From contig CAUEEP010000389.1 of NCBI GenBank assembly GCA_958450365.1, positions 150,001 to 214,000 on the forward strand: DNA of 64,000 nucleotides, read 5' to 3'. The notes beneath the pieces were generated by a model, which saw nothing but the letters and a program-made list of their open reading frames with translations, was not told the DNA's origin and ran no database searches. Positions 6,696 to 64,000 of the stretch are shown here, piece by piece (position 1 is the stretch's first letter; the number at the start of each line of letters is the position of its first letter). The position numbers were made by a program, and so were the translations under genes. The DNA is from Mesorhabditis belari (lineage: Eukaryota; Nematoda; Chromadorea; Rhabditida; Rhabditidae).

Positions 6696-7740
6696 AGGCT
6701 TTTGGACTCGTAAATCTCGGAGATACTTCAGAGCAATCTGTCGGTCGAGTGGAAGACGAAAGCCCATAGTTTTGGACTCATCAGTCTCGGAGATACTTCA
6801 GAGCAATCTGTCGGTCGAGCGGAGGACGAAACTCATTGAGCTGTGCGGAGCAGGGAAAAACGTTGATTGGAACCACTGGCCCTCGTCACTCCACTCTTCA
6901 CGCCGCCGCCGTTTGATGGTGAAGAATCTGCTCTTCTTATCGACTCAATGAGGGACCCTGTTGAGGCAGCATTGCCGAGACAAACCTCATTGATGTCGGG
7001 CAAACTCGTCGTTCTCGTCTCGTCTCCGAAGTTGCTGCCCAGAAAGGATGCTGATGGATGCTACCAAGACGTCGATGGTGTGCCGCCGCTTCATGCCTTC
7101 CCATGCCGCCGCCTGAAGACGTCCAGCCCCTCGTATCACACCCTGCCTGCCCAGACGGTGAAGAAAGGCGTCCGAGACCCGTTCGGCCCCCTGCGATCTT
7201 GATGATGGTGCCGCCGCTTTATGCCTCAACCCTAGGCGCCATCTGACGGTGACCATGCCCGACGACTCCGCCCAATCTTTCGCTCAACGACGGTGAAGAA
7301 GCGTTCGACTGCTCCAAGACTACAAGAAGTCAGACGGTGAAGAAGATGTCGACTACTCATCCTGATGGTGTGTGCCGCCGCTTTATGCCTCAACCCTAGG
7401 CCCCCTGTGGATGCCAGAAGTCGACAATGCCTCCCTCTACCTCAACGACGGTGAAGAAGAGAGCCTCAACTCCAAAGAAGCGATCATTCATCATTTATCT
7501 TTCCGGTTCGTGATGTCTTATTTTGCAACATCTTGATTTTTGCAATCAAATGTTTTGTTCTTATTTCTGGATGTTTTCATCTTTTCGATGTCTCATCTTT
7601 CCATTTCATTGACCCACCCTTTTATATGCCGCCTCAAATTTTCTGTGTGTTGCATCCTCTCATTTTCTCAATTTTGACCCGTAATTGTCATACACCGGCC
7701 GGGGTGCATACCGAGCCCATCATTCGCTGAATAAACTTAA
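6696..7740 (+). mobile_element. non-autonomous U2-specific retroelement N1, full length
   Basis: A 1045-bp insertion between perfect 20-bp target copies at 6676-6695 and 7741-7760. It has no RT. The 5' end holds a 70-bp direct repeat (6700-6769 and 6770-6838). The middle has the target-mimic/stem-loop module at 6936-6993 and then degenerate repeats rich in GACGGTGAAGAA and GCCGCTTTATGCC...CCTAGG. The 3' end (ACCGGCCGGGGTGCATACC...GCCCATCA...CTGAATAAACTTAA) resembles the ends of the B and C families. These features suggest it is moved in trans by an autonomous element. Confidence 0.88.
6936..6995 (+). promoter_or_regulatory. target-mimic stem-loop module (N1 version)
   Basis: CTTATCGACTCAAT resembles the end of the U2 target. 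TCAATGAGG (6945-6953) pairs with CCTCATTGA (6985-6993), enclosing the GGCA-gcat-TGCC hairpin at 6965-6976. ATG-TCG-GGC starts at 6993. The pairing is kept by compensatory changes relative to the other families. Confidence 0.7.
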
Positions 7741-12431: not shown

Positions 12432-12853
12432 GTTCTTAGTCTTCTCTTCTTTCTTGCTTTCTTGTTGTCCTTCTCTTTTGTCTCCTCCTAGCCAAAATCA
12501 TCCCTATCTTGCCTTGCGATCAAATATCTGTGATAATGCATCTCACATATCTCTCATATCTAACTTTCGTTCTGACTTTCACTTAGTCTTGTGTTTTCTT
12601 ATAGGTTCATAACATTTATTGCTTTCTGCTCTAATGTTCTATATTCTACTCAACATTTCTATCTGTGCATACCTCTTCTCATGGTTTCCTAATTCACTAG
12701 GCCCATCTACTATTCCTTATTCAACCCGTTCTGTGTTTGCATATACCCTATGTTTTCTTAAATGTGGGTTCATACATTTCCTGTATTTTAATCCGTTGTG
12801 ATAGACCGGCTGGGGTTTTGTACCATGCCCATCATGCACTGAAATAAACTTAA
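9144..12853 (+). mobile_element. family B1 retrotransposon, 5'-deleted
   Basis: Lacks about the first 435 bp compared with the full copy at 20416. The 422-bp 3' UTR (12432-12853) ends ACCGGCTGGGG...GCCCATCATGC...AATAAACTTAA. The target copy 12854-12873 follows, and the next element starts immediately. Confidence 0.9.
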
Positions 12854-13178
12854 TCTGTTCTTATCGGCTTAATAAGTTTATCGCTTGTTAACGTCACGCA
12901 CCGGTGTATACTGGGTAAGGCTGGAACAGTACAATACAGAGATTGGAACTATGAGAACCACGAGGCGTCTACATCGACTACAAGGGGAAGCCTCCCTCGC
13001 CGCCTCTTCCGTCGCCCCCTCCACGCATAGACAGCCACAGTCTATAAAAGCCGTCGATTCCCCTGTGACGTTAACTAGCTCGGAAGACGGGGGGGCTTTA
13101 TTTTTAGCCCCCAGCTCCTGCGATCAAAAGCGGTTGAGCTACCCCGTCACGCCGGATGTTAACTCCGACGAAGAAGAC

Positions 13179-13240
13179 CTTATCGGCTTGAGTGGGTTTC
13201 TTGTTAAGGCAGCATTGCCGAGACAATCCCACTTAATGTC
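13179..13240 (+). promoter_or_regulatory. target-mimic stem-loop module (A, copy 1)
   Basis: CTTATCGGCTT at 13179-13189 equals part of the U2 target. TTGAGTGGG (13188-13196) pairs with CCCACTTAA (13228-13236), with the inner hairpin GGCA-gcat-TGCC between them. ATG-TCG-GGC follows at 13236. It lies inside the open frame and also reads AALPRQSHLMSG. Confidence 0.7.
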
Positions 13241-13342
13241 GGGCGAGACGGAGAGACGGAGACGATCACCGAATATCGACGACGAAAGACGACAAGTGCC
13301 CCGACGCGATGCCTCCCACTCACACGATGCGCGACACGACAT

Positions 13343-13402
13343 TACCGGCTTGAATGGTGGTATTGGTAAGGCAGCATTGCCGAGTCAACCCCATTTAATG
13401 TC
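13343..13402 (+). promoter_or_regulatory. target-mimic stem-loop module (A, copy 2)
   Basis: Second module about 160 bp after the first: TTACCGGCTTGAAT, stem TTGAATGG (13350-13357) with CCATTTAA (13391-13398), the same inner hairpin, then ATG-TCG-GGC. The stem bases differ from copy 1 but still pair. The copy at 31442 has only one module. Confidence 0.68.
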
Positions 13403-16400
13403 GGGCGCCACCGACGGAGACAACCCACCCGATGCCATCTCCCAAGTCTCTTCACACTCTTCACACATCTCCAGGCATCCCGCCGAGGACAGTACCGAAG
13501 ACGTTGGAATGGCGGATCCAGGGAGGTTTAATTTAACCCAAACCTCATCTAAATACTTTCTGGATATGCCGCTCGACGAACGTCTCAAGTGCAAATGGTG
13601 TGAAGGCATCTACATCCGGCAGGGGGACCTCAAGAAGCACCTCGGCAACAAGCACGGCTGGAAGGATGAGTTTGTGTTTAGGTGCAAGAGCTGTGGTCTG
13701 GAGTTCGACACAAAGAAAAAGGCGGACGAACACCTGAGGAAATCATGCGACGAGGATGGGTTCCCTCTGCTTTTTAACGACTACATAGTCAAGATAGAAA
13801 ATATAGAAAGTATTGAAAGCATAGATCTCAGGTGTCGCCTATGTGTCGCTCCAGCCGCAGCCAAACTTAAATCAATTAAAAGCTTACAGGCGCACCTCCG
13901 CATACACGTCGCCAAGCTCGTCTTCGAATGCACTCGATGTCTGGCCCACTTCCACGGCAAGAGGGATTTCAACCCACACCTCCCCAGCTACAAGAAGAAG
14001 GGAACAACACAACGGAGAGGTCAGTTGGAGGCGAATAATGACTCAATTGAGATCGGATCGCCGCCGGATGCCCACCCACCTCCACCCGGCTACAAGAAGA
14101 AGGCAACACGCAAAAGGAACGGTCAGAGGCCAGAGTTTTCTCATGAGACTACTAAAGAAATCCCTAATGAAATTCTAATTGAGGAAATCATCGGTTCCCC
14201 AGTCACCGGACCTGCCGCAGCTCGCCAACTACACGCCACGCCTCCACCCAGCCCACCACCAGCCGAGCTGAACAACACCTTCACGATTCACCACCGGACC
14301 CCGCTCAGGAGCCCTCCAGTGCCTCAACCGCCACCATCAATGGCCGCAAATGGAGCTCCACATCAACGGGAATGGACGGACAAGTTTAATAGGGTTACTA
14401 ATCCTCAAGATCTAGACACCCTGCTCGAACAGCTCGTGGAAGAGGCGAAGAAGACAACAAAGATGGGAGACGCGCCGCCGAAGAGTCCACGCCCAGCCCA
14501 GCCAAGAAGACAGCCGCCGCCAACAAGAAGAGGACCACCACGCTACGATCCAAGGGCTGCATCGAGGATCCAGAAGCTCTACAGGAAGTGTCGCCCACGG
14601 GCATTCAGAGAAGTTGTTGAGGCAGGTTCACCATTCTGTCAAATTCCAGCAAACGACCTCCACCGGCATTTCAGCGACGTGTTTGGACCGTCCTCACTAG
14701 TGGATCCGACCATTCCCGACTTCGTGCCAGAGCAAGAGGACAACTTGGCCGGTGATGTTAACCCGTTTAACGAAATCTTTACAGCTCCGGAGGTTTGGTC
14801 TCGTCTCTCCCGATGCTCCAACACCGCGCCTGGTCCGGACCTCCTTCGCTACGCCGTGTGGAAGAAGTACGACAACGGTGCACACATCCTTGCCTCGCTC
14901 TTCAACGCTTGTCACCGACTACATCACGTGCCAGCGAAATGGAATCAATCCTCGACGGTGCTGCTCCACAAGAAGGGCGACAAAAGAGAAGTTAACAACT
15001 GGAGACCTATCTCCATGTCCAACACTATTTCAAAGGTTTACACTTCAACTTTAGCAAATCGTCTTGGGAAGTGGGCAAGCCGCCATGGACGTATCTCCAA
15101 ATCGCAGAAGGGCTTCGTGGCAGCCGACGGATGTGCGGAACACAACTTCGTCCTCCAATCGACCATCGTGGATGCTCGCCGGAACCGAAAACAAGTTTCA
15201 ATGGCATGGCTTGACCTAACAAATGCCTTTGGTAGTGTTCCCCATCAATCCATTTTCAGTGCCCTCAAGTACGCCGGACTCAGCACCACTGCAATCGATG
15301 TCATCCGCCGCCTCTACTCCGAATGCTCCACCACCATCCGAAGCTCTACTGGTCCCACCAACGACATCCGGATACAGGCAGGAGTAAAGCAGGGTTGCCC
15401 TTTGTCACCCATTATCTTTAATTTAACACTTGAGCCCCTTCTCCGAGCCATCTCCCAAGTCAACAACGGATACAAGATGCATGGACGAAATGTGGATGTG
15501 CTGGCATACGCGGACGACCTCGCGGTAATCACAGGTACTCCAACCCAACTTCAGAAAACACTCGATGTCGTCTCCTCGGCAGCTGACTGGTTAGGGCTGA
15601 AGTTCAACTCCAAGAAGTGCGCCAGCCTGTGTATCGATGGGAAGAAGAATAAAGCACTCAACAACCAACTACGAGTACAAGGGGAGTTTATAGCCGTCCA
15701 CTCTGAGGACGACCTATATGAACATCTAGGCACACCAACCGGCTATCACTCCGCCCCCAGCGCTCAGAAGGTGATTGAGAAGATGACCGCCCAGCTCGAC
15801 GCCCTCGACTCCTCGTTACTCGCTCCATGGCAGAAGGCCGACGCCATCAACACATTTGTTTTACCGTGTATTTCTTTTCATCTAAAAAATGGTGTTGTAG
15901 CTAAGAAACCACTTACAGCATTCGACAACAAGCTCAAGTCCGCCGCCAAGAAGTGGATGAATCTGCCTGAACGAGCCAGCCCAGAAGTCATCTATCTCTC
16001 CAATCAGATGGGTGGCTTAGGACTACAGAAAATTTCAGTACTGGCGGATGTCTCCCAACTTGTGCACGGCCTCCGACTACTCACCTCACCAGATGTCAAG
16101 GACTTCGCCGCAGCCTGCCTCCACGAGACGGTGACCAAACGACTCCGAAGGGCTATACGTAACGAACAAGAAATTAGCCAATATCTTAACGGTTCAATGG
16201 AAGGAGATTTCAGGCTTGAGTCCAGCGACATCACCAACATGTGGATCCGACTACGCAAAGCGACTCGAAGACTGAAGGCGAAGATGGACATCGAATGGAA
16301 ATGGGAATCTGGCAAAATTAACCTTTTACTAAATAAAACCCAACTTCCAGCCACAACCGTCGAATACTCCCTTCGTTCTGCCGTCCGAGAGTTCTACCGC

Positions 16401-17082
16401 CAGAGCCTCATCTCCAAGCCGGATCAGGGAAAAGTTTATAGCCTTACGACCAGTTCAAACTGCTCGAACCACTTTCTGCAAACGGGTCAATTCACCCGTT
16501 TTGCAGACTGGAGATTCATCCATCGAGCACGTTTGGACTGTGTCCCCCTGAATGCGACTAAAAGATTTGGTAACGGTAACAAAAATTGCAGGCGATGTGG
16601 ACACTCCTCCGAAACTCTTCCCCACGTGTTATGTCATTGCAAGCCCCATCTCGCGACGATCACCCGAAGACACAACGCCATCTTGGACCGACTCGTAAAG
16701 GCTGTTAAGATTCCTGAAACTTCACTAATGCGTATTAACCAACAAGTTCCAGGCATTAACTCCGACCTACGGCCCGACCTTGTCATCCAGGACCACCAAG
16801 CCAAGACGGTGACCATCATCGACGTAACAATGCCCTTCGAGAACCGAGTGGACGCCTTCATCAACTCCAGACAAGAGAAGCTTCGGAAGTACGACGACAT
16901 CGCCAACCAACTCCGAGCCCTCAACTACGACGTCTACCTGGACGCATTTACGGTCGGCCCTCTTGGTGGATGGTGCTTAACTAATGATGTTATACTTAGG
17001 AAACTCGGCGTCTCACTGCGATATGGTCAACTCATGAAGAAACTGATGGTCTCGGATGCGATCAAATGGTCTCGCGATGTCT

Positions 17083-17792
17083 CCGAGCCGACCCCAGCGC
17101 AGCGCGTAAGGCAAACCAAGAAGAAGACGACTCCACGCCTCGCTCCAACTCATCAAGAAGAAGAAGAACCCAGCCCACCAACGACTACAGCCCCGAAGAT
17201 GAATCCGAAGTGCCGCCCTCTCGTCGTCCGCGAGCCACCCGAGCTCCCCCTGGGTCCGCGCAGCCGCCACCGGCGCCGCATGTGTTGCCGCCGCTCTCGC
17301 CGCCGCCGCCAGGAACAGGACAACCGGGAACGCTCACCAACGACGATGACGACACCGACGACTACCCACTCGACCTGCCCCATCTCGACGCGACGTACCA
17401 ATGTGGACTCTGCGCCAAGAAGCCGTATGTGCAGCAAGGAGGACTGACACGACATCTCCGCGATGCCCACCGAAAGCGGATCACTTTCCGCTGCCGTGGA
17501 TGCCTTCGCGTCCTCCCTACCGTCAAGAATTGGAGGCCTCATCAGAAGACGTGCCCCGTGTCAGCAACCCCCGGGCCAGTGCAGACAGCTCAGCCAGCGC
17601 AGGCGCCAATCGTGCCACCACGTGTGCAGGTGCCAATCGTGCCACCGCGTGAGTCTGTGACTGAGCCTGTCTTGCCCGTGCCGACAACACCGATGCTGAC
17701 ACGCGCCTCTTCGCCGCCTCCAAGTCCTCCACTGCCACACGCTTCTCCGCCGCCTCCACCACCTACACACGCCTCTCCACAGATCCACAGAC
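17083..17792 (+). pseudogene. family B N-terminal fragment inside chimera
   Basis: Corresponds to 20689-21395 of the B1 element: acidic/basic linker, Pro-rich stretch and the two zinc fingers (YQCGLC..., FRCRGC...). It is read in a different frame from the preceding A protein but is in frame with the following C fragment. Confidence 0.85.
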
Positions 17793-19817
17793 AAAAAGGC
17801 TTCCTGGCAATTGATGGATGCACGGAACATAACTTTCTCCTCCAATCTGCCATCGTTGATGCACGAAGAAACCGAAGGGCTATCAGTATAGCGTGGCTTG
17901 ATCTAACCAACGCGTTTGGCTCCGTACCGCATGCAACCATCTTCACGGCTTTGAAATACTCTGGGCTTAACGACCAGGCCATTGATGTGATCCGGCGTCT
18001 ATATGCGAACTGTACGACAAGCGTTCGTAGCTCAACTGGCCCAACGGCGGCAATTCCGATTCTGGCCGGAGTCAAACAAGGATGCCCGATGAGTCCAATC
18101 GTGTTTAACCTGGCGCTCGAACCACTCATACGTGCAGTCACCGAACTAAAAGCTGGTTATAAAATGCACAATCGAGATGTGGACATTCTTGCATATGCTG
18201 ATGACTTGGCCATAGTGACAGACTCCCCACGCCAACTCCAAAAAGTGCTAAACATTGTCTCGAGGGCGGCAGACTGGTCAGGGCTGAAATTCAACACAAA
18301 AAAGTGCGCATCACTATGCATTGACGGCAAGAAAAACAAGACATTGGATGACAAATTCCTATTGCAGGGCAAACACCTAGAGGTACACCAAGAAGACGAT
18401 GTGTACGAGCATCTAGGCACCCCGACTGGATATAGATCAGCACCTACGGCCCAAAAAGTCATCGAAAACATGGAAAAAGAACTCAAAGCGGTCGATCAGT
18501 CACTCCTTGCACCATGGCAAAAAAGCGGACGCAATAAACACCTTTGTATTGCCATGCATTTCGTTCCACCTCAAGAATGGAGTAGTGCCAAAGAAACCGC
18601 TGAATGGGTTTGACAAGAAGCTGAAAGCGGCCGGAAAGAAATGGCTTAACTTACCGGAGAGGGCTAGTCCAGAAGTACTGTACCTGGGACACAACATGGG
18701 TGGCCTGAACTTTCAACCAATGACCTCGCTCGCCGACATCTCACAGATAGTTCACGGAGTTCGGCTCATAGAATCCGCGGATATGGCAGAAGTGGCAATG
18801 GGTTCTCTACGAGAAACGGTAACCAAAAGACTTCGCAGACCAATCCAAAACGGCGAAGAAATAGCGGAATATCTGAATGGGTCAATGGAAGGGGACTTCA
18901 AGCAAGACTCGAGCGGGGACTACACCAACACGTGGACCCGACTCAGATCGGCAACAAGAAGACTAAAGTCGAAAATGGCGGTCGAATGGAAATGGCTGGC
19001 AGGGACGTTATCCCTATGCCTAAACCAGAGCCAAGTCCAACCGAAATCGGTAGAATACTCGCTGCGATGCTCAATCCGCGACTACTATCGCCGAAAACTT
19101 CTTGCTAAACCCGACCAGGGAAAGGTCTATTCCGTCACATCGGCCACAAATGCTCCAAATCACTTCATGAAGACGGGCCAATTTACCAGATTTGCCGATT
19201 GGAGATTCATACACAGAGCAAGGCTCGATTGCGTTCCCCTCAATGCAACAAAGCGGTTTGGAAATGGCAGTAAAGAGTGCAGAAGATGCCAATACGCAAC
19301 AGAAACTCTACCTCACGTGCTATGCCATTGTGCGCCTCAACTCGCCACCATCACCCGCCGCCACAACGCCATTGTGGACCGAATCGTCAAAGCATTCAAG
19401 CCGCCACCGACAACGGAAGTCCGATTGAACCAGCAAGTGCCCGGAATGACCGACGGACTCAAACCCGACATCGTCGCCATTGACCACAACGCCAAGAGGG
19501 TCACAATCGTTGACGTCACAATGCCGTTTGAGAATCGCCATGATGCCTTCATAGTCGCCCGGCAAGAAAAGAAACGGAAATACGAGCCCACTGCTGCCTA
19601 TTTTCGAGACCTTGGATACGATGTGTTCTTGGACGCGTTCATCGTCGGCCCACTTGGAGGATGGTGTATTTTGAATGAACTCGTTCTTCGACGCCTTCAA
19701 ATATCGGTGAAATATGGGATGCTGATGCAGAAGCTGATGATCTCTGACGCGATCAAATGGTCCCGCGATATTTATTTGGAGCATCTAACGGGGAAACGAC
19801 AATATGAGACGGCGTAA
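17793..19817 (+). pseudogene. family C RT/RLE protein fragment, frameshifted
   Basis: Only copy of a third family in this window. It starts at the QKGFLAIDGC motif of RT, so the N-terminal half is missing. RT motifs AWLDLTNAFGS, AGVKQGCPMSP and LAYADDLAI are present. The frame breaks near 18525, where a run of six A replaces five (LAPWQK|ADAINTF in sister proteins). It continues to the stop at 19815-19817 through the knuckle (CRRC...H...C), KPDIV and IVDVTMPFEN. The protein is clearly diverged from both A and B along its length. Confidence 0.86.
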
Positions 19818-19939
19818 TTTACTACTACCGATCCTAAATATTGTCTACTAAAGACTGAATATTTCCTTGGAAATTTTTTTTTTTAGGTGTGCTTAACTTT
19901 GTGATTTGAGTATTCATAAGATTCATATTTGTGTGATTA

Positions 19940-24169: not shown

Positions 24170-24795
24170 GTTCTTAGTCTTCTCTTCTTTCTTGCTTTCT
24201 TGTTGTCTTTCTCTTTTGTCTCCTCCTAGCCAAAATCATCCCTATCTTGCCTTGCGATCAAATATCTGTGATAATGCATCTCACATATCTCTCATATCTA
24301 ACTTTCGTTCCGACTTTCATTTAGTCTTGTGTTTTCCTATAGGTTCATAACATTTATTGCTTTGTGCTCTAATGTTCTATATTCTACTCAACATTTCTAT
24401 CTGTGCATACCTCTTCTCATGGTTTCCTAATTCACTAGGCCCATCTACTATTCCTCATTCAACCCTTTCTGTGTTTGCATATACCCTATGTTTTCTTAAA
24501 TGTGGGTTCATACATTTCCTGTATTTTAATCCGTTGTGATAGACCGGCTGGGGTTTTGTACCATGCCCATCATGCACTGAAATAAACTTCCTCTGTTCTT
24601 ATCGGCTTAATAGGCTTTTGGACTCGTAAATCTCGGAGATACTTCAGAGCAATCTGTCGGTCGAGTGGAAGACGAAAGCCCATAGTTTTGGACTCATCAG
24701 TCTCGGAGATACTTCAGAGAAATCTGTCGGTCGAGCGGAGGACGAAACTCATTGAGCTGTGCGGAGCAGGGAAAAACGTTGATTGGAACCACTGG

Positions 24796-24848
24796 CTTCT
24801 GGCCTCTGGCTAAGATCAATGTGGAGTATCTGTTCTTATCGGCTTAAT
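24796..24848 (+). pseudogene. U2 snRNA 5' fragment inside composite element
   Basis: U2 nt 5-57 with GTGGAGTA replacing GTGTAGTA, a change in the branch-site recognition region shared by all four composites. It includes a perfect 20-bp target (24829-24848), which therefore lies inside the element. Confidence 0.88.
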
Positions 24849-24897
24849 TGGTGATTTTGTGAAAGCAGCATTGCTGGAACAAATCCCGATTGATGTC
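24835..24897 (+). promoter_or_regulatory. target/stem-loop module (N2 version)
   Basis: The final bases of the U2 target form the stem. TTAATTGG (24844-24851) pairs with CCGATTGA (24886-24893), including two G-T pairs. The inner hairpin is AGCA-gcat-TGCT instead of GGCA-gcat-TGCC, a compensatory pair change. ATG-TCG-GGC follows at 24893. Confidence 0.7.
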
Positions 24898-25727
24898 GGG
24901 CAAAGCAGAGAAAAACTTTGATTGGATCCAGGGCCCCTCCTCACTCCACTCTTCATGGGCCCCTCTGCTGATGGTGAAGAATCTCGTCGTTCTCCTCTCG
25001 TCAAGAACTCTCTGTTGCCAAAGAAGGACGGTGATCCGATGCTGCCCCCTCCCAGGCTCTGATGGTGTGTGCCGATGCGCAATGCCTAAACCCTAGGCAC
25101 CACCTGAAGATGTCTGGGAGCCCCGCCTCTCGACTCACGCCTCTCCAAGACTTCGCTGCTGCCAAGAAAGGATGTTGATTCGACGCTGCCGTCTGCCAAA
25201 CTCTGATGGTGTGTGCCGCCGCTTTATGCCAACCCCAGGCACCACCTGAAGATGCCCGGATGGTCCGCCTTTCGTCTCACACCCTGCCGGCCCCGACGGT
25301 GAAGAAATGTGCGACTCATCAAAGAAGAAGAAGAGATTCGGCCCCCTGCGATCTTGATGATGGTGCCGCCGCTCAATGCCTAAACCCTAGGCGCCATCTG
25401 ATAGTGAACATGCCCGACGACTCCCCTCACCTGCACGACGGTCCTGAAGAGCCTCTCCACGTCCAAAGAAGCGATCATTCATCTTTTTCCTTTCGATTCT
25501 GATGTCTTATTCTTGCAACATTTTTTGTTTTTCCTCAAAATGTTTGTGACTATCTCATGCAAGTACTGTATCTGGTATAAGCATCTTTATTTCCTGAATG
25601 TATGCAACTCAATTGGTTGTATTTCTCATTGACTCTTCACTGTAAACCTTGTGATAGACCGGCTGGGGTTCGTACCATGCCCATCAACATTCGCTGAATA
25701 AACTTAATCTGTTCTTATCGGCTTAAT

Positions 25728-28775: not shown

Positions 28776-29878
28776 AGGCTTTTGGACTCGTAAATCTCGG
28801 AGATACTTCAGAGCAATCTGTCGGTCGAGTAGAAGACGAAAGCCCATAGTTTTGGACTCATCAGTCTCGGAGATACTTCAGAGAAATCTGTCGGTCGAGC
28901 GGAGGACGAAACTCATTGAGCCGTGCGGAGCAGGGAAAAACGTTGATTGGAACCACTGGCTTCTGGCCTCTGGCTAAGATCAATGTGGAGTATCTGTCCT
29001 TATCGGCTTAATTGGTGATTTTGTGAAAGCAGCATTGCTGGAACAAATCCCGATTGATGTCGGGCAAAGCAGAGAAAACTTTGATTGGATCCAGGGCCCC
29101 TCGTCACTCCACTCTTCATGGGCCCCTCTGCTGATGGTGAAGAATCTCGTCGTTCTCCTCTCGTCAAGAACTCTCCGTTGCCAAAGAAGGACGGTGATCC
29201 GATGCTGCCCCCTGCCAGGCTCTGATGATGTGTGCCGCTGCGCAATGCCTAAACCCTAGGCACCACCTGAAGATGTCTGGGAGCCCCGCCTCTCGACTCA
29301 CGCCTCTCCAAGACTTCGCTGCTGCCAAGAAAGGATGTTGATTCGACGCTGCCGTCTGCCAAACTCTGATGGTGTGTGCCGCCGCTTTATGCCAACCCCA
29401 GGCACCACCTGAAGATGCCCGGATGGTCCGCCTTTCGTCTCACACCCTGCCGGCCCCGACGGTGAAGAAATGTGCGACTCATCAAAGAAGAAGAAGAGAT
29501 TCGGCCCCCTGCGATCTTGATGATGGTGCCGCCGCTCAATGCCTAAACCCTAGGCGCCATCTGATAGTGAACATGCCCGACGACTCCCCTCACCTGCACG
29601 ACGGTCCTGAAGAGCCTCTCCACGTCCAAAGAAGCGATCATTCATCTTTTTCCTTTCGATTCTGATGTCTTATTCTTGCAACATTTTTTGTTTTTCCTCA
29701 AAATGTTTGTGACTATCTCATGCAAGTACTTTATCTGGTATAAGCATCTTTATTTCCTGAATGTATGCAACTCAATTTGTCTATTGGTTGTATTTCTCAT
29801 TGACTCTTCACTGTAAACCTTGTGATAGACCGGCTGGGGTTCGTACCATGCCCATCAACATTCGCTGAATAAACTTAA
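28776..29878 (+). mobile_element. composite non-autonomous element: N1 5' end + U2 fragment + N2
   Basis: A 1103-bp copy inserted behind a family A element, between target copies 28756-28775 and 29879-29898. The internal target at 28993-29012 has one change (TCTGTCCTTATCGG). N2 here keeps 8 bp (in CTCAATTTGTCTATTGG) that the copy at 24849 lacks. The stem-loop module is at 29008-29057. Confidence 0.82.
28960..29012 (+). pseudogene. U2 snRNA 5' fragment inside composite element
   Basis: U2 nt 5-57 with the shared GTGGAGTA change plus a T-to-C change in the target. Confidence 0.86.
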
Positions 29879-31441: not shown

Positions 31442-31756
31442 AAGTTTATCGCTTGTTAACGTCACGCACCGGTGTATACTGGGTAAGGCTGGAACAGTAC
31501 AACACGGAGATTGGAACTATGAGAACCACGAGGCGTCTACATCGACTTCAAAGGGAAGCCTCCCTCGTCGCCTCTTCCGCCGCCGCCTCCACGGACAGAC
31601 AGCCACAGTCTATAAAAGCCGTCAATTCCCCTACGACGTTAAACAGCTCGGAAGACGGGGGGGGCTTTATTTTTAGCCCCCAGCTCCTGCGATCAAAAGC
31701 GGTTGAGCTACCCCGTCACGCCGAATGTTAACTCCAGGGATGACGACGAAGACGAC

Positions 31757-31818
31757 CTTATCGGCTTAAATGGGTTTCTTGTTAAGGCAGCATTGCCGAG
31801 ACAATCCCATTTAATGTC
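31757..31818 (+). promoter_or_regulatory. target-mimic stem-loop module (A, single copy)
   Basis: CTTATCGGCTTAA (31757-31769) is identical to the end of the U2 target. TTAAATGGG (31766-31774) pairs perfectly with CCCATTTAA (31806-31814). The inner GGCA-gcat-TGCC hairpin is kept and ATG-TCG-GGC begins at 31814. Confidence 0.72.
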
Positions 31819-34800
31819 GGGCGCGAGCGACGACGACGGAGACCACCGACTACCGACACGACTATCTGAGCCCCGACGCGATGCCAAGGACGACTACTCA
31901 CACGAGCCCCGACACGATGCCTCGACGTCAAAAGCCTCCTCTTCTCTCGCCACCTCGTTACGCACCTCCAGGCATCCCGCCGAGGACAGCACCGAAGACG
32001 TTGGAATGGCAGATCCAGGGAGGTTTAACCTAACCCAAACCTCATCTAAATACTTTCTGGATATGCCTCTCGACGATCGACTAAAATGCAAATGGTGCGA
32101 GGGACTCTACATTCGGCAGGGGGACCTCAAGAAGCACCTCGGCAACAAGCACGGCTGGAAGGATGAGTTTGTGTTTAGGTGCAAGAGCTGTGGTCTGGAG
32201 TTCGACACAAAGAAAAAGGCGGACGAACACCTGAGGAAATCATGCGACGAGGATGGGTTCCCTCTGCTTTTTAACGACTACATAGTCAAGATAGAAAATA
32301 TAGAAAGTATTGAAAGCATAGATCTCAGGTGTCGCCTATGTGTCGCTCCAGCCGCAGCCAAACTTAAATCAATTAAAAGCTTACAGGCGCACCTCCGCAT
32401 ACACGTCGCCAAGCTCGTCTTCGAATGCACTCGATGTCTGGCCCACTTCCACGGCAAGAGGGATTTCAACCCACACCTCCCCAGCTGCAAGAAGAAGGGA
32501 ACAACACAAGGGAGAGGTCAGTTGGAGGCGAATAATGACTCAATTGAGATCGGATCGCCGCCGGATGCCCACCCACCTCCACCCGGCTACAAGAAGAAGG
32601 CAACACGCAAAAGGAACGGTCAGAGGCCAGAGTTTTCTCATGAGACTACTAAAGAAATCCCTAATGAAATTCTAATTGAGGAAATCATCGGTTCCCCAGT
32701 CACCGGACCTGCCGCAGCTCGCCAACTACACGCCACGCCACCTCCACCACCGCCAAGCCCTCCACGACACCTACACGCCACGCCACCACCAAGCCCACTA
32801 GCCGAGCTGAACGAGACCTTCACCATCCACCACCGGACCCCGCCGAGAAGCCCTCCAATGCCTCAACCGCCACCAATGGCCGCCAATGGAGCTACTCATC
32901 AACGGGAATGGACGGACAAGTTTAATAGGGTTATTAATCCTCAAGATCTAGACACCCTGCTCGAACAGCTCGTGGAAGAGGCGAAGAAGACAACAAAGAT
33001 GGGAGACGCGCCGCCGAAGAGCCCACGCCCAGTCCAGCCAAGAAGACAGCCGCCACCACCACCAAGAAGAGGACCACCACGACGACGTTACGACCCAAAG
33101 GCCGCCTCAAGGATACAGAAGATGTACAGGAAGTGTCGCCCACGGGCATTCAGAGAAGTTGTTGAGGCAGGTTCACCATTTTGCCAAATTCCAGCAAACG
33201 ACCTCCACCGGCATTTCAGCGACGTGTTTGGACCGTCCCCACTAGTGGATCCGACCATTCCCGACTTCGTGCCAGAGCAAGAGGACAACCTAACCGGTGA
33301 TGTTAACCCGTTTAACGAAATCTTTACAGCTCCGGAGGTTTGGTCTCGTCTCTCCCGATGCTCCAACACCGCGCCTGGTCCGGACCTCCTTCGCTACGCC
33401 GTGTGGAAGAAGTACGACAACGGTGCACACATCCTTGCCTCGCTCTTCAACGCTTGTCACCGACTACATCACGTGCCAGCGAAATGGAATCAATCCTCGA
33501 CGGTGCTGCTCCACAAGAAGGGCGACAAAAGAGAAGTTAACAACTGGAGACCTATCTCCATGTCCAACACTATTTCAAAGGTTTACACTTCAACTTTAGC
33601 AAATCGTCTTGGGAAGTGGGCAAGCCGCCATGGACGTATCTCCAAATCGCAGAAGGGCTTCGTGGCAGCCGACGGATGTGCGGAACACAACTTCGTCCTC
33701 CAATCGACCATCGTGGATGCTCGCCGGAACCGAAAACAAGTTTCAATGGCATGGCTTGACCTAACAAATGCCTTTGGTAGTGTTCCCCATCAATCCATTT
33801 TCAGTGCCCTAAAGTACGCCGGACTCAACGACACTGCCATCGAGGTCATCCGCCGTCTCTACGCCAACTGCTCCACAACCATCCGAAGCTCCACTGGTCC
33901 GACCAACGACATCCCAATTCAGGCAGGAGTAAAGCAGGGTTGCCCTTTGTCACCCATTATCTTTAATTTAACACTTGAGCCTCTTCTCCGAGCCATCTCC
34001 CAAGTCAACAACGGATACAAGATGCATGGACGAAATGTGGATGTGCTAGCCTACGCGGACGACCTTGCGGTAATCACAGGTACCCCAACCCAACTTCAGA
34101 AAACACTCGATGTCGTCTCCTCGGCAGCTGACTGGTTAGGGCTGAAGTTCAACTCGAAGAAGTGCGCCAGCCTCTGCATCGATGGGAAGAAGAAACAAGC
34201 GCTCAACAACCGACTACGAGTACAAGGGGAGTTTATAGCCGTCCACTCTGAGGACGACCTATATGAACACCTAGGCACACCAACCGGCTATCACTCCGCC
34301 CCCAGCGCTCAGAAGGTGATTGAGAAGATGACCGCCCAGCTCGACGCCCTCGACTCCTCGTTACTCGCTCCATGGCAGAAGGCCGACGCCATCAACACCT
34401 TTGTTTTACCGTGTATCTCTTTTCATCTAAAAAATGGTGTTGTAGCAAAAAAGCCACTTACAGCATTCGACAACAAGCTCAAGGCCGTCGCCAAGAAATG
34501 GATGAATCTGCCGGAACGCGCCAGTCCAGAAGTCCTCTACCTCTCCAGTCAGATGGGTGGTTTAGGTCTACAGAAAATTTCAGTTCTCGCGGATGTCTCC
34601 AAGCTTGTGCACGGCCTCCGACTACTCACCTCACCAGATGTCAAGGACTTCGCCGCAGCCTGCCTCCACGAGACGGTGACCAAACGACTTCGGAGGGCGA
34701 TACGTAACGAACAAGAAATTACTCAGTATCTGAACGGTTCAATGGAAGGAGATTTCAGGCTTGAGTCCAGCGACATCACCAACATGTGGATCCGACTACG

Positions 34801-35668
34801 CAAAGCGACTCGAAGACTGAAGGCGAAGATGGACATCGAATGGAAATGGGAATCTGGCAAAATTAACCTTTTACTAAATAAAACCCAACTTCCAGCCACA
34901 ACCGTCGAATACTCCCTTCGTTATGCCGTCCGAGAGTTCTACCGCCAGAGCCTCATCTCCAAGCCGGATCAGGGAAAAGTTTACAGCCTTACGACCAGTT
35001 CAAACTGCTCGAACCACTTTCTGCAAACGGGTCAATTCACCCGTTTTGCAGACTGGAGATTCATCCATCGAGCACGTTTGGACTGTGTCCCCCTGAATGC
35101 CACTAAAAGATTTGGTAATGGTAACAAAAATTGCAGGCGATGTGGACACTCCTCCGAAACTCTTCCCCACGTGTTATGCCATTGCAAGCCCCATCTCGCG
35201 ACGATCACCCGAAGACACAACGCCATCTTGGACCGACTCGTAAAGGCTGTTAAGATTCCTGAAACTTCATTAATGCGTATTAACCAACAAGTTCCAGGCA
35301 TTAACTCCGACCTACGGCCCGACCTTGTCATCCAGGACCACCAAGCCAAGACGGTGACCATCATCGACGTAACAATGCCCTTCGAGAACCGAGTGGACGC
35401 CTTCATCAACTCCAGACAAGAGAAGCTTCGGAAGTACGACGACATCGCCAACCAACTCCGAGCCCTCAACTACGACGTCTATCTGGATGCTTTTACGGTC
35501 GGCCCCCTTGGTGGATGGTGTTTAACTAACGATGTAATACTTAGAAAACTCGGCGTCTCACTGCGATATGGTCAACTCATGAAGAAGCTAATGGTTTCCG
35601 ATGCAATCAAATGGTCCAGGGACATCTACGTGGAACACCTAACAGGAACTAAACAATATGTTGATTGA
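31814..35668 (+). CDS. family A zinc-finger/RT/restriction-like endonuclease protein
   Basis: Predicted 1284-aa protein. I chose ATG 31814, the first ATG of the long frame and the one just after the conserved stem-loop. An upstream ATG at 31519 is out of frame here because a G run near 31657-31664 has eight G, against seven in the copy at 12874. Zinc fingers start at about C92 (CKWC...H...H), then FRCKSC, LRCRLC and FECTRC pairs. A Pro-rich linker follows. RT has catalytic D649 (AWLDLTNAFGS) and YADD with D749/D750. The knuckle is C1107, C1110, H1119, C1122. RLE has P-D1170 and D1185 (IIDVTMPFE). Stop at 35666-35668. No internal stops, so it is a candidate active element. Confidence 0.9.
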   Translation: MSGASDDDGDHRLPTRLSEPRRDAKDDYSHEPRHDASTSKASSSLATSLRTSRHPAEDSTEDVGMADPGRFNLTQTSSKYFLDMPLDDRLKCKWCEGLYIRQGDLKKHLGNKHGWKDEFVFRCKSCGLEFDTKKKADEHLRKSCDEDGFPLLFNDYIVKIENIESIESIDLRCRLCVAPAAAKLKSIKSLQAHLRIHVAKLVFECTRCLAHFHGKRDFNPHLPSCKKKGTTQGRGQLEANNDSIEIGSPPDAHPPPPGYKKKATRKRNGQRPEFSHETTKEIPNEILIEEIIGSPVTGPAAARQLHATPPPPPPSPPRHLHATPPPSPLAELNETFTIHHRTPPRSPPMPQPPPMAANGATHQREWTDKFNRVINPQDLDTLLEQLVEEAKKTTKMGDAPPKSPRPVQPRRQPPPPPRRGPPRRRYDPKAASRIQKMYRKCRPRAFREVVEAGSPFCQIPANDLHRHFSDVFGPSPLVDPTIPDFVPEQEDNLTGDVNPFNEIFTAPEVWSRLSRCSNTAPGPDLLRYAVWKKYDNGAHILASLFNACHRLHHVPAKWNQSSTVLLHKKGDKREVNNWRPISMSNTISKVYTSTLANRLGKWASRHGRISKSQKGFVAADGCAEHNFVLQSTIVDARRNRKQVSMAWLDLTNAFGSVPHQSIFSALKYAGLNDTAIEVIRRLYANCSTTIRSSTGPTNDIPIQAGVKQGCPLSPIIFNLTLEPLLRAISQVNNGYKMHGRNVDVLAYADDLAVITGTPTQLQKTLDVVSSAADWLGLKFNSKKCASLCIDGKKKQALNNRLRVQGEFIAVHSEDDLYEHLGTPTGYHSAPSAQKVIEKMTAQLDALDSSLLAPWQKADAINTFVLPCISFHLKNGVVAKKPLTAFDNKLKAVAKKWMNLPERASPEVLYLSSQMGGLGLQKISVLADVSKLVHGLRLLTSPDVKDFAAACLHETVTKRLRRAIRNEQEITQYLNGSMEGDFRLESSDITNMWIRLRKATRRLKAKMDIEWKWESGKINLLLNKTQLPATTVEYSLRYAVREFYRQSLISKPDQGKVYSLTTSSNCSNHFLQTGQFTRFADWRFIHRARLDCVPLNATKRFGNGNKNCRRCGHSSETLPHVLCHCKPHLATITRRHNAILDRLVKAVKIPETSLMRINQQVPGINSDLRPDLVIQDHQAKTVTIIDVTMPFENRVDAFINSRQEKLRKYDDIANQLRALNYDVYLDAFTVGPLGGWCLTNDVILRKLGVSLRYGQLMKKLMVSDAIKWSRDIYVEHLTGTKQYVD

Positions 35669-35917
35669 ACAGAGAGAAGCCCTTACTTTTTGTCTTACAT
35701 CTATTATTTCAAATTGTCATTTTTCTCAAAAATTGTTATATCTTAAAACAATTTTCTATATATTCTATTGTGATTTATTGACCTTATCGCTTCACTATAT
35801 GCAAGTACCTCTATTTGTATTTGTATTCATCAATTCTAGTGCCATCGGGCATCATATATTATTTGAAATTTTACAACATTCACTGAATAAAACTTCCTCT
35901 GTTCTTATCGGCTTAAT

Positions 35918-37406: not shown

Positions 37407-37594
37407 ATCGCTTCTGGCCTCTGGCTAAGATCAATGTGTAGTATCTGTTCTTATCGGCTTAATCTCCGGTACGAGTTCTATTGAACTCATCGAGATTAAT
37501 CAATTTTTGGAACGGGTACGGTTTGTAGAAGCTTGCTTCTCGCCGTACAGCGTCGGCCCGCTATTGCACTTACCGGCGGGATCGGCGCACACCC
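37407..37594 (+). ncRNA. U2: U2 snRNA, intact
   Basis: Uninterrupted 188-nt U2 gene, the same length as human U2 from recall. It begins ATCGCTTCTGGCC and TGGCTAAGATCAA (5' stem-loop I). The branch-site recognition sequence GTAGTA is at nt 32-37, and CTGTTCTTATC is strictly conserved. An Sm-site region AATTTTTGGAACG is followed by stem-loops III (GTACGG...CCGTAC) and IV (GCCCGC...GCGGG-type). The transposon target is nt 38-57 (37444-37463). U2 pairs with the intron branch site in the spliceosome for both cis- and SL trans-splicing. The 3' end is set by homology. A CCCCC/GGGGG inverted repeat starts within the last bases. Confidence 0.95.
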
Positions 37595-37712
37595 CCAGTG
37601 ATGGGGGAACAAAATAAAGAACGAAAAACAAAGCGCAAAGCGACAGTCTTCCTTTATTTTATCGAAACCTACAAGCAAACCATCATCTTTACTCTACCGG
37701 CGAAAAGCAAAA

Positions 37713-49151: not shown

Positions 49152-50073
49152 AGGCTTTTGGACTCGTAAATCTCGGAGATACTTCAGAGCAATCTGTCGG
49201 TCGAGTGGAAGACGAAAGCCCATAGTTTTGGACTCATCAGTCTCGGAGATACTTCAGAGAAATCTGTCGGTCGAGCGGAGGACGAAACTCATTGAGCTGT
49301 GCGGAGCAGGGAAAAACGTTGATTGGAACCACTGGCTTCTGGCCTCTGGCTAAGATCAATGTGGAGTATCTGTTCTTATCGGCTTAATTGGTGATTTTGT
49401 GAAAGCAGCATTGCTGGAACAAATCCCGATTGATGTCGGGCAAAGCAGAGAAAAACTTTGATTGGATCCAGGGCCACTCCTCACTCCACTCTTCATGGGC
49501 CCCTCTGCTGATGGTGAAGAATCTCGTCGTTCTCCTCTCGTCAAGAACTCTCTGTTGCCAAAGAAGGACGGTGATCCGATGCTGCCCCCTCCCAGGCTCT
49601 GATGGTGTGTGCCGATGCGCAATGCCTAAACCCTAGGCACCACCTGAAGATGTCTGGGAGCCCCGCCTCTCGACTCACGCCTCTCCAAGACTTCGCTGCT
49701 GCCAAGAAAGGATGTTGATTCGACGCTGCCGTCTGCCAAACTCTGATGGTGTGTGCCGCCGCTTTATGCCAACCCCAGGCACCACCTGAAGATGCCCGGA
49801 TGGTCCGCCTTTCGTCTCACACCCTGCCGGCCCCGACGGTGAAGAAATGTGCGACTCATCAAAGAAGAAGAAGAGATTCGGCCCCCTGCGATCTTGATGA
49901 TGGTGCCGCCGCTCAATGCCTAAACCCTAGGCGCCATCTGATAGTGAACATGCCCGACGACTCCCCTCACCTGCACGACGGTCCTGAAGAGCCTCTCCAC
50001 GTCCAAAGAAGCGATCATTCATCTTTTTCCTTTCGATTCTGATGTCTTATTCTTGCAACATTTTTTGTTTTTC
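49152..50073 (+). mobile_element. composite non-autonomous element, 3'-truncated
   Basis: Same N1 5' end + U2 fragment + N2 order as 24612-25707. It ends at about 50073 after TTTTTTGTTTTT, without the N2 3' terminus or a target copy. A short CGCTTTCGCTATCGCT stretch joins it to a U2 start. Stem-loop module at 49384-49433. Confidence 0.82.
49336..49388 (+). pseudogene. U2 snRNA 5' fragment inside composite element
   Basis: U2 nt 5-57 with the shared GTGGAGTA change. Internal target 49369-49388 is perfect. Confidence 0.87.
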
Positions 50074-58464: not shown

Positions 58465-59568
58465 AGGCTTTTGGACTCGTAAATCTCGGAGATACTTCAG
58501 AGCAATCTGTCGGTCGAGTGGAAGACGAAAGCCCATAGTTTTGGACTCATCAGTCTCGGAGATACTTCAGAGAAATCTGTCGGTCGAGCGGAGGACGAAA
58601 CTCATTGAGCTGTGCGGAGCAGGGAAAAACGTTGATTGGAACCACTGGCTTCTGGCCTCTGGCTAAGATCAATGTGGAGTATCTGTTCTTATCGGCTTAA
58701 TTGGTGATTTTGTGAAAGCAGCATTGCTGGAACAAATCCCGATTGATGTCGGGCAAAGCAGAGAAAAACTTTGATTGGATCCAGGGCCCCTCCTCACTCC
58801 ACTCTTCATGGGCCCCTCTGCTGATGGTGAAGAATCTCGTCGTTCTCCTCTCGTCAAGAACTCTCTGTTGCCAAAGAAGGACGGTGATCCGATGCTGCCC
58901 CCTCCCAGGCTCTGATGGTGTGTGCCGATGCGCAATGCCTAAACCCTAGGCACCACCTGAAGATGTCTGGGAGCCCCGCCTCTCGACTCACGCCTCTCCA
59001 AGACTTCGCTGCTGCCAAGAAAGGATGTTGATTCGACGCTGCCGTCTGCCAAACTCTGATGGTGTGTGCCGCCGCTTTATGCCAACCCCAGGCACCACCT
59101 GAAGATGCCCGGATGGTCCGCCTTTCGTCTCACACCCTGCCGGCCCCGACGGTGAAGAAATGTGCGACTCATCAAAGAAGAAGAAGAGATTCGGCCCCCT
59201 GCGATCTTGATGATGGTGCCGCCGCTCAATGCCTAAACCCTAGGCGCCATCTGATAGTGAACATGCCCGACGACTCCCCTCACCTGCACGACGGTCCTGA
59301 AGAGCCTCTCCACGTCCAAAGAAGCGATCATTCATCTTTTTCCTTTCGATTCTGATGTCTTATTCTTGCAACATTTTTTGTTTTTCCTCAAAATGTTTGT
59401 GACTATCTCATGCAAGTACTTTATCTGGTATAAGCATCTTTATTTCCTGAATGTATGCAACTCAATTTGTCTATTGGTTGTATTTCTCATTGACTCTTCA
59501 CTGTAAACCTTGTGATAGACCGGCTGGGGTTCGTACCATGCCCATCAACATTCGCTGAATAAACTTAA
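58465..59568 (+). mobile_element. composite non-autonomous element: N1 5' end + U2 fragment + N2
   Basis: A 1104-bp copy between target copies 58445-58464 and 59569-59588. It lies in the duplicated block but keeps the 8 bp lost from the copy at 24612. Stem-loop module at 58697-58746. Confidence 0.83.
58649..58701 (+). pseudogene. U2 snRNA 5' fragment inside composite element
   Basis: U2 nt 5-57 with the GTGGAGTA change. Internal target 58682-58701. Confidence 0.87.
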
Positions 59569-62637: not shown

Positions 62638-63682
62638 AGGCTTTTGGACTCGTAAATCTCGGAGATACTTCAGAGCAATCTGTCGGTCGAGTAGAAGACG
62701 AAAGCCCATAGTTTTGGACTCATCAGTCTCGGAGATACTTCAGAGAAATCTGTCGGTCGAGCGGAGGACGAAACTCATTGAGCCGTGCGGAGCAAGGAAA
62801 AACGTTGATTGGAACCACTGGCCCTCGTCACTCCACTCTTCACGCCGCCGCCGTTTGATGGTGAAGAATCTGCTCTTCTTATCGACTCAATGAGGGACCC
62901 TGTTGAGGCAGCATTGCCGAGACAAACCTCATTGATGTCGGGCAAACTCGTCGTTCTCAACTCGTCGCCGAAGTTGCTGTCCAGAAAGGATGCTGATCCG
63001 ATGCTGCGAAGACGTCGATGGTGTGCCGCCGCTTTATGCTTACCCATGCCGCCGCCTGAAGACGTCCAGCCCTGCGTCTCACACCCTGCCTGCCCAGACG
63101 GTGAAGAAAGGCGTCCGAGACGCGATCGGCCTCTGCGATCTCGATGATGGTGCCGCCGCTTTATGCCTCAACCCTAGGCGCCATCTGACAGTGACCACGC
63201 CCGACGACTCCGCCCAATCTTCCTCTCAACGACGGTGAAGAAGCGTTCGACTCCTCCAAGACTCCAAGAAGACAGACGGTGAAGAAGATGTCGACTACTC
63301 ATCCTGATGGTGTGTGCCGCCGCTTTATGCCTCAACCCTAGGCCCCCTGTGGATGCCAGAAGTCGACAATGCCTTCCTCTACCTCAACGACGGTGAAGAA
63401 GAGAGCCTCCACTCCAAAGAAACGATCATTCATCATTTATCTTTCCGGTTCGTGATGTCTTATTTTGCAACATCTTGATTCTTGCAATCAAATGTTTTGT
63501 TCTTATTTCTGGATGTTTTCATCTTTTCGATGTCTCATCTTTCCATTTCATTGACCCACCCTTTTATATGCCGCCTCAAATTTTCTGTGTGTTGCATCCT
63601 CTCATTTTCTCAATTTTGACCCGTAATTGTCATACACCGGCCGGGGTGCATACCGAGCCCATCATTCGCTGAATAAACTAAA
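62638..63682 (+). mobile_element. non-autonomous U2-specific retroelement N1, full length
   Basis: 1045 bp, the same length as 6696-7740, between target copies 62618-62637 and 63683-63702. It is inserted directly behind a family A element and followed by another N1. Stem-loop module at 62887-62935. Its tail reads CTGAATAAACTAAA, against CTTAA in the copy at 6696. Confidence 0.88.
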
Positions 63683-63702: not shown

Positions 63703-64000
63703 AGGCTTTTGGACTCGTAAATCTCGGAGATACTTCAGAGCAATCTGTCGGTCGAGTAGAAGACGAAAGCCCATAGTTTTGGACTCATCAGTCTCGGAGA
63801 TACTTCAGAGAAATCTGTCGGTCGAGCGGAGGACGAAACTCATTGAGCTGTGCGGAGCAAGGAAAAACGTTGATTGGAACCACTGGCCCTCGTCACTCCA
63901 CTCTTCACGCCGCCGCCGTTTGATGGTGAAGAATCTGCTCTTCTTATCGACTCAATGAGGGACCCTGTTGAGGCAGCATTGCCGAGACAAACCTCATTGA
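63703..64000 (+). mobile_element. non-autonomous retroelement N1, cut by window end
   Basis: First 298 bp of a further N1, containing the 70-bp repeat pair. The stem of its module (63952-64000) closes at the last base of the window. Confidence 0.87.

What the first reader, a model, noticed from the sequence alone, without database searches (positions are those of the whole stretch)
13179..13400. Covarying target-mimic stem-loop followed by ATG-TCG-GGC
A, N1 and N2 each carry a U2-target-like stretch whose last bases form one side of a stem: TTGAGTGGG/CCCACTTAA (13188), TTGAATGG/CCATTTAA (13350), TTAAATGGG/CCCATTTAA (31766), TCAATGAGG/CCTCATTGA (6945, 62887, 63952), TTAATTGG/CCGATTGA (24844, 29008, 49384, 58697). 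The inner hairpin switches GGCA/TGCC to AGCA/TGCT as a pair, with an amino-acid change in the coding frame. ATG directly follows in all. This argues for selection on RNA structure, possibly for RNP binding, start selection or 5' end processing.
Basis: partly seen in the sequence, partly recalled or inferred. Interest (0 to 1): 0.9.

Follow-up and report, generated by a model that had tools for sequence, protein, structure and literature searches.

The report
U2-site-derived RNA hairpin in retrotransposons
Several families of jumping genes that sit in the host's U2 splicing-RNA genes carry, near their front end, a small RNA hairpin one side of which copies the U2 landing site, and its base pairing has been kept while its letters changed, so the RNA shape itself seems to matter for the element.

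Summary
The window is a U2/5S array packed with R2-like retrotransposons inserted in U2. A 66-67-nt module (13179-13244, 13341-13406 and 8 further window sites) folds into a sense-strand RNA hairpin whose 5' arm copies the U2 target just before the insertion point. The conserved ATGTCGG is mostly the 3' arm: its U is a bulge and GTCGG pairs with U2-derived TCGGC. In 54 copies (23 distinct), 95.8% of pair cells are standard and 8 of 23 pairs changed on both sides; tree-based nulls did not reach that pairing (0/2000), but a strict R-scape-like test passes only 1 of 23 pairs. The module is nearly all that the coding A family shares with the non-coding N1 and N2. In A it lies inside a frame already open from upstream, so start selection is not supported, nor is 5'-end processing. 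In N1 it directly follows a U2 head ending at the insertion point, and one copy (L047) sits at the target with the module as its 5' end: it looks like a captured old 5' junction. Best reading: a 5' RNA motif for the element's RNP. Function untested; literature comparison is from recall.

The parts
13179..13244 (+). Hairpin module, A family, copy 1. 5' (U2-like) arm 13183-13196, inner arms 13201-13205 / 13222-13226, cap 13208-13219 (GGCAgcatTGCC), 3' arm 13228-13236, bulged U 13237, GTCGG 13238-13242
13341..13406 (+). Hairpin module, A family, in-frame tandem copy 2 (162 nt after copy 1)
31757..31822 (+). Hairpin module in second A-family element (one copy)
6936..7001 (+). Hairpin module in non-coding element N2
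62878..62943 (+). Hairpin module, N2
63943..64000 (+). Hairpin module, N2, cut by the window end
24835..24901 (+). Hairpin module, non-coding element N1
28999..29065 (+). Hairpin module, N1
49375..49441 (+). Hairpin module, N1
58688..58754 (+). Hairpin module, N1
24795..24848 (+). Internal U2 head (U2 nt 4-57, 98% identical) directly before the N1 module, ending at the insertion point CTTAAT; same at 28959-29012, 49335-49388, 58648-58701
12854..12873 (+). 20-nt U2 target copy (TCTGTTCTTATCGGCTTAAT) at the 5' junction of the A element; the same 20 nt follow element 3' ends, e.g. 24592-24611
12874..12895 (+). A-element 5' terminus; can pair with the U2 arm GGCTTAAT before it (not significant: 60 of 1000 shuffles as good)
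12951..17447 (+). A-family ORF (zinc-finger-like N terminus, R2-like reverse transcriptase); module at codons ~77-98 and again ~131-152
31442..35897 (+). Second A-family element; its frame is broken upstream of the module
6696..7740 (+). N2 element; no ORF above 150 aa listed
24612..25707 (+). N1 element; no ORF of 100 aa or more listed
37407..37595 (+). Uninterrupted U2 snRNA gene (the target); insertion point after 37463

Best explanation
The module is a structured RNA motif near the 5' end of the RNAs of U2-specific, R2-like retrotransposons. It arose when an earlier element's own 5' junction (U2 target arm plus the element's first ~50 nt, which fold together) was carried inside a longer element as new 5' sequence was added in front. 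It has been kept because the RNA shape matters: most likely as the 5' site through which the element's reverse transcriptase RNP recognises its RNA (comparable in role to the R2 5' protein-binding motif, recalled), also used by the non-coding passengers N1 and N2. Shown: anatomy, conserved pairing on the sense strand, module shared by otherwise unlike elements, U2 heads captured in front of it in N1. Inferred: the order of events, binding by the RT, and the step it serves.
For: Outer stem and cap in 12 of 12 representatives. 54 copies at E<=1e-10 in the window and 38 loci, 23 distinct; 95.8% of 522 cells paired, 8 of 23 pairs with changes on both sides, 0/500 shuffles reach the covariation score, slid registers 23-52% paired. 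Tree-based null: 0.958 against 0.77-0.78, 0/2000 with each of two trees. The A element at 31442-35897 matches N1 and N2 only over the ~66-nt module at the cut-off used (E 1e-4, 30 nt or more, plus strand). N1 and N2 show no RT-sized ORF, and N1 has an extra base inside the module that shifts the A frame. Origin: in N1 the module follows a U2 head ending at the insertion point, and at L047 a copy 99.4% identical to N1 over 641 nt sits after the 20-nt target copy with the module as its 5' end. N2's 5' arm has left the U2 sequence by changes that turn U-G and G-U into C-G and A-U.
Against: No binding, cleavage or transposition data. The C-, D- and E-type copies that I examined in the same U2 genes lack the module (window with default filters; eight loci L039-L046 with filters off), so it is not needed for U2 insertion in general. 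N1's last 59 nt match the C/D-type 3' end (86-98%) and not the A copy at 31442-35897, so which protein moves N1 and N2 is open. The strict covariation test passes 1 of 23 pairs, and none when all 2701 column pairs are allowed; several unpaired column pairs score as high as true pairs. Only three deep lineages, in one genome. Pairing of the N1 module, taken as a 5' terminus, with the 20-nt target is not stronger than shuffled sequence (z -0.2, 396 of 1000). Distance from the 5' end is not fixed: 305-315 nt in the two window A elements, 223 in N1, 240 in N2, about 167 in an L013 copy. Module codons alone are not clearly neutral. One A copy lacks the module, by an internal deletion (L033).
Confidence: 0.5

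Rival explanations
1. U2 mimicry: the hairpin imitates U2 stem IIc/IIb (UUAAUCUC/GAGAUUAA around a hairpin) or stem IIa in a U2-element co-transcript, so that the RNA is transcribed, stabilised or escorted like U2. (Stem names recalled.)
For: In this U2 the same arm UUAAUCUC pairs with GAGAUUAA around an inner hairpin (last fold). A co-transcript is suggested by U2 heads joined to other DNA at or next to U2 +1.
Against: The module is internal in present A and N2, away from the U2 head, and N2 has lost part of the U2 sequence while keeping pairing.
Confidence: 0.15
2. Junction device: the target-arm hairpin helps to complete the 5' junction (cDNA and top strand aligned through the target copy), and the internal copy can serve as a second, internal 5' landing point.
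For: 5' termini of C-type elements can pair with the U2 target arm over 13 bp (z -2.6, 20 of 1000 shuffles as good; variant C' z -3.8, 1 of 1000); all 13 distinct C/D/E-type 5' ends folded show it (but these were picked by a pattern containing part of that arm). L047 shows a 5' junction exactly at N1's internal target copy.
Against: A is marginal (z -1.7, 60 of 1000), and N 5' termini (z -0.1) and the N1 module itself (z -0.2) show nothing unusual in the same test. No A element truncated at its module was found with the pattern (16 matches, all N1-type). L047 is a single case and recombination would also give it. N2's arm no longer matches U2 fully.
Confidence: 0.15
3. Protein-level feature: the module encodes a conserved peptide (LIGLxGxxVKAALPRQxHLMSG) and the hairpin is a by-product.
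For: The frame is open from the upstream ATG through the module in 13 of 14 A copies, tandem copies are in frame, and N2 keeps that frame. Module 1 N/S ratio 0.55, not distinguishable from the zinc-finger region (p 0.48).
Against: Amino acids change while pairs are kept; the core KAALPRQ shows no synonymous change (0 of 270 pairwise sites); N1 shifts frame inside the module; codons 1-75 evolve as if neutral (ratio 1.11) against 0.31 in the zinc-finger region.
Confidence: 0.08
4. Relic: a captured old 5' junction spread by template switching and gene conversion among elements, with no present function.
For: Composite elements joined at or near U2 heads were met repeatedly; the A 5' region is little diverged (pS 0.043 in codons 1-75 against 0.30 downstream).
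Against: Preserved pairing between lineages: same-branch double changes that keep pairs number 4 against 0.5 expected (1 of 2000) or 11 against 2.6 (0 of 2000), by tree.
Confidence: 0.12

Closest known systems
R2 non-LTR retrotransposons and their 5' protein-binding RNA motif (pseudoknot overlapping the ORF start; recalled, no paper could be read)
   Same: R2-like protein (A ORF matches R2 protein chains in the PDB, best E 2.8e-71); structured 5' RNA near or inside the start of the coding region; probable co-transcription with the target gene.
   Different: Target is U2, not 28S; about 20-nt target duplication; a bulged hairpin (no pseudoknot looked for); one arm copies the target; modules can be tandem.
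Utopia, U2-targeting non-LTR retrotransposons (Kojima and Jurka 2015; recalled, the paper could not be opened)
   Same: R2-type element inserted at a fixed site in U2 genes.
   Different: Clade membership not tested here; I do not know whether a target-arm hairpin is described there.
R2 HDV-like 5' ribozymes that include upstream target sequence (recalled)
   Same: A structure formed across the target/element boundary.
   Different: No HDV or other ribozyme family matched; the module is a single bulged hairpin.
SINE-like non-autonomous elements
   Same: N1 and N2 have no RT-sized ORF and share only short 5' and 3' stretches with coding elements.
   Different: The shared 5' stretch is a hairpin with a U2-derived arm; the 3' end is of the other (C/D) type.

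Membership tests
R2-like (RLE-type) non-LTR retrotransposons | Reverse transcriptase related to R2 | tested here: met
   RVT_1 5.5e-32; R2 proteins in the PDB, E 2.8e-71 over residues 596-1355
R2-like (RLE-type) non-LTR retrotransposons | N-terminal C2H2 zinc fingers | tested here: inconclusive
   C2H2-type Pfam matches at E 4.7e-05 (and a related model at 0.0021), below curated cut-offs; CxxC..H..H pattern visible in the translation
R2-like (RLE-type) non-LTR retrotransposons | C-terminal restriction-like endonuclease | tested here: inconclusive
   A CxxC..H..C followed by a PD..D motif is visible (motif recalled); the PDB alignment reaches residue 1355; no endonuclease model matched at E 0.01
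U2-specific elements | Fixed insertion point in U2 | tested here: met
   5' junctions at CTTAAT and 3' junctions before TCTGTT in the window; 120 places genome-wide of the 20-nt target followed by other than native sequence (100 listed; these include N1's internal copies)
Utopia clade | RT phylogeny within Utopia | not tested
   No reference sequences; paper tool failed
R2 5' protein-binding motif | Binding by the element's protein | not testable with these tools
   needs biochemistry
R2 5' protein-binding motif | Conserved structure near the ORF start with paired changes | tested here: met
   the strict test is weak
HDV-like ribozyme | HDV fold | tested here: not met
   no match in the window at gathering thresholds; at E up to 10 in 12700-13700 only an unrelated pseudoknot on the other strand

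The most novel reading that the evidence does not exclude
The template RNA carries an RNA copy of its own genomic landing site, folded as a bulged double helix, which the element's target-recognition machinery binds in place of or alongside the DNA target: target mimicry used to pick template RNAs, which non-coding passengers exploit by carrying the same mimic; the same captured arm can also act as an internal 5' landing point.
Probability: 0.15. Interest if true: 0.8.

Novelty: new variant of a known kind. Interest (0 to 1): 0.6.

Why it matters
How R2-type proteins choose their RNA, and how 5' junctions are completed, are central for target-primed insertion and its use in gene writing. Here a short motif, present in coding and non-coding elements of one U2 array and built on the target sequence, gives a defined RNA to test, with natural compensatory variants as built-in controls.

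Tried and rejected
Known ribozymes and RNA families: none at the module. Module in C/D/E-type copies: not found in those examined. Universal pairing of element 5' ends with the target arm: not held; N and the N1 module show none and A is marginal. A elements truncated at their module: none with the pattern tried. Start codon at the module: rejected for A. Protein neutrality of the module itself: suggestive with pairwise counts, not significant on a tree, so not claimed. R-scape-like test: weak. N1 and N2 were not scanned against protein families. Structure prediction was not used. Rows left out: the alignment used seven of the ten window copies; searches used 22 of 23 distinct modules (the one cut by the window end dropped); searches used the 11 A copies with an open 405-codon frame out of 15 A 5' ends found; the search began with a letter that shuts out flanks with C at that place and listed 100 of 114; one search listed 100 of 120. 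On re-checking I corrected module ends by one base, added the N1-module row and the L013 distance, and therefore moved the junction rival from 0.17 to 0.15 and the relic rival from 0.10 to 0.12.

Tools that gave nothing: paper searches and readings failed or timed out, so every statement on literature is recalled, and no claim is made that the motif is absent from print. The protein database was switched off, so no relatives from other species could be sought.

Full report
Setting. The window is bases 150001-214000 of contig C286 in a 207.6-Mb assembly, evidently of a eukaryote (U2 and 5S genes). It is a tandem array of about 1.5-kb units with a U2 snRNA gene on + and a 5S gene on -, invaded by R2-like retrotransposons at one point in U2: 5' junctions read ...TCTGTTCTTATCGGCTTAAT|element and 3' junctions element|TCTGTTCTTATCGGCTTAAT..., a target duplication of about 20 nt. 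Families: A (ORF with RT, E 2.8e-71 to R2 proteins in the PDB), C-, D- and E-type (other RT families with another 5' end), and N1 and N2, 1.05-1.1 kb, with no RT-sized ORF and no nucleotide match to the RT parts.

What the module is. Seven of the ten window copies align over 72 columns with 84% mean identity. The fold is an outer stem of up to 14 pairs in which U2-like TCGGC+TTAA.. pairs with ..TTAA-(U)-GTCGG, a short internal stretch, a 4-5 bp helix, a purine-rich internal loop (AA/GA in most A copies, GA/GA in N2), and a 4-bp cap with loop GCAU. Energies are -23 to -29 kcal/mol with z -2.4 to -4.4 in the five copies tested. The conserved ATGTCGG is therefore mostly the 3' arm of the stem. 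In 12 of 12 representatives of the distinct modules the outer stem and cap are in the minimum-energy fold; the inner helix varies.

Selection on pairing. A covariance model found 54 copies at E<=1e-10 in the window and 38 fetched loci, 23 distinct. Of 522 cells 95.8% are standard pairs; 8 of 23 pairs have changes on both sides; 0/500 shuffles reach the covariation score of 0.296 and 1/500 the number of such pairs; the number of further pair types is not unusual (105/500); registers slid by 1-3 bases give 23-52% paired cells. That alignment was fitted to the structure by the model, which favours it; the MAFFT alignment of the seven window copies (five distinct) gave 96.5% and 6 pairs. Against nulls that keep the number of changes per branch, starting from the inferred root, 0.958 paired compares with 0.768 +/- 0.032 (tree from all columns) and 0.780 +/- 0.038 (tree from unpaired columns), 0/2000 each; double changes that keep the pair number 4 against 0.5 (1/2000) and 11 against 2.6 (0/2000). 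A G-test with tree null, close to R-scape, is much less favourable: one pair (27-46: UA, GU, CG) at E 0.011 within the 23 pairs, none when all 2701 column pairs are allowed, and several unpaired column pairs score as high as true pairs. Variation lies mainly on three deep branches (A, N1, N2), so power is low. G-U cells number 65 and A-C cells 8, as expected for the sense RNA.

RNA or protein. Of 15 A 5' ends found in the sequence then held, 14 carry one or two modules; the fifteenth (L033) has an internal deletion that removes the module region. In 13 of these 14 the frame is open from an ATG 77 nt into the element through the module; in the element at 31442-35897 it is broken upstream. Tandem copies are in frame. 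With pairwise counts on the 11 copies with a long open frame, pN/pS are 0.049/0.043 in codons 1-75, 0.079/0.094 in module 1, 0.278/0.280 in module 2 and 0.100/0.297 in the zinc-finger region and after, and the core KAALPRQ has no synonymous change. On a tree the ratios are 1.11, 0.55, 0.79 and 0.31; only codons 1-75 differ clearly from the zinc-finger region (p 0.0002; modules p 0.48 and 0.05), and neither module differs from neutral (p 0.19 and 0.57). So the region tolerates amino-acid change, but the module alone cannot be called neutral. The stronger arguments for RNA are N1, whose module breaks the A frame, and pairing kept through amino-acid changes.

A shared signal. The A copy at 31442-35897 and N1 or N2 match at the cut-off used over 66-68 nt only, which is the module. 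The composite stretch 12874-20395, which begins with the A element and ends with a D-type element, also shares its last 59-82 nt with N1 and N2, and C shares 59 nt with N1 (86%). Shorter likeness at the extreme 3' end (CTGAATAAA) is common to the families by eye. So N elements combine an A-type 5' module with a C/D-type 3' end, which leaves open which protein moves them. Genome counts are lower bounds: 22 N1-type cores, 18 matches to the N2 module and 8 modules of the ATGCCGG type.

Origin. In N1 the module directly follows U2 nt 4-57, ending exactly at the insertion point. In A and N2 the module starts with 10-13 of 14 target letters, in N1 with 14. At L047 a copy 99.4% identical to N1 over 641 nt has no upstream N sequence: an A-type 3' end and the 20-nt target copy are followed at once by the module. 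So the module reads as a former 5' terminus together with the target arm beside it. N2 has C-G and A-U where N1 has U-G and G-U, by changes on the U2-derived side, while the 3' arms of N1 and N2 are alike in their last part, as expected if the captured arm was freed from U2 identity and then tuned for pairing. Against this, the pairing of the N1 module with the 20-nt target alone is no better than shuffled sequence.

Transcription. A search for U2 heads in other than the native upstream context gave 114 places (100 listed). Apart from N1 copies (joined at +4), a few heads joined at +4 to another U2 head, and a satellite-like array (TAAGACCC or TGAGACCC before ATCG), about ten different upstream sequences are joined at U2 +1 or +2 (+1 as placed by the Rfam match); one of them (ATTCTAGT) could be a variant native promoter. 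I read five such places: L027 and L033 and window 50089 continue into C-, A- and C-type 5' ends, L025 and L026 (one flank) into the first ~14 nt of an N 5' end. This fits element RNAs that begin at the U2 start. It is an inference from junctions, not from RNA.

Other target-arm pairing. C-type 5' ends can pair with TCTGTTC..ATCGGC over 13 bp (z -2.6; variant C' z -3.8); A is marginal (z -1.7) and N shows none. All 13 distinct C/D/E-type 5' ends folded show this junction hairpin, but they were picked by a pattern that includes part of the arm; 12 of them, all that reach far enough, show a second strong hairpin close to the ORF start, different in sequence between C/D and E. A strong hairpin near the start of the coding region thus seems common to the U2 elements seen here, and the module may be the A/N version.

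Verdict. A real RNA motif with good though not strict evidence of selection for shape, derived from a target/element junction, most likely a 5' RNP-binding signal (0.5). Literature comparison is from recall only, since the paper tools failed throughout.

Noticed in passing
L025, L026, L027, L033; window 50089-50145; one search list: U2 heads joined to other upstream DNA at U2 +1 or +2 and followed by element 5' sequence: suggests element RNAs are co-transcribed from the U2 start.
   Followed up: partly
G000 C598 about 90000-126000, C670 about 700-27500, C521 about 105000-118000: Satellite-like array of U2 heads preceded by TAAGACCC or TGAGACCC, many a few hundred bases apart.
   Followed up: no
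window 20483-20512; L040 about 495-534: Very strong hairpins near the ORF start of C/D-type (12 bp) and E-type (17 bp) elements, unrelated in sequence: a possible counterpart of the module.
   Followed up: partly
L048, L049, L033: Chimeras in which an N-type 5' end runs into another element (C-like ORF, A-type RT, or U2 head plus C 5' end), as from template switching.
   Followed up: partly
A ORF codons 1-75 (window 12951-13175 and homologs): Low divergence with pN about equal to pS (0.049/0.043) against pS 0.30 downstream: either recent 5' exchange or RNA-level constraint over the 5' 300 nt.
   Followed up: partly
window 12874-20395: Composite of an A element, a C piece and a 5'-truncated D element; the last 59 nt are 98% identical to N1's 3' end.
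   Followed up: yes
window 6696-6835 and other N 5' ends: N 5' end holds two tandem ~70-nt repeats, about 90% alike.
   Followed up: no
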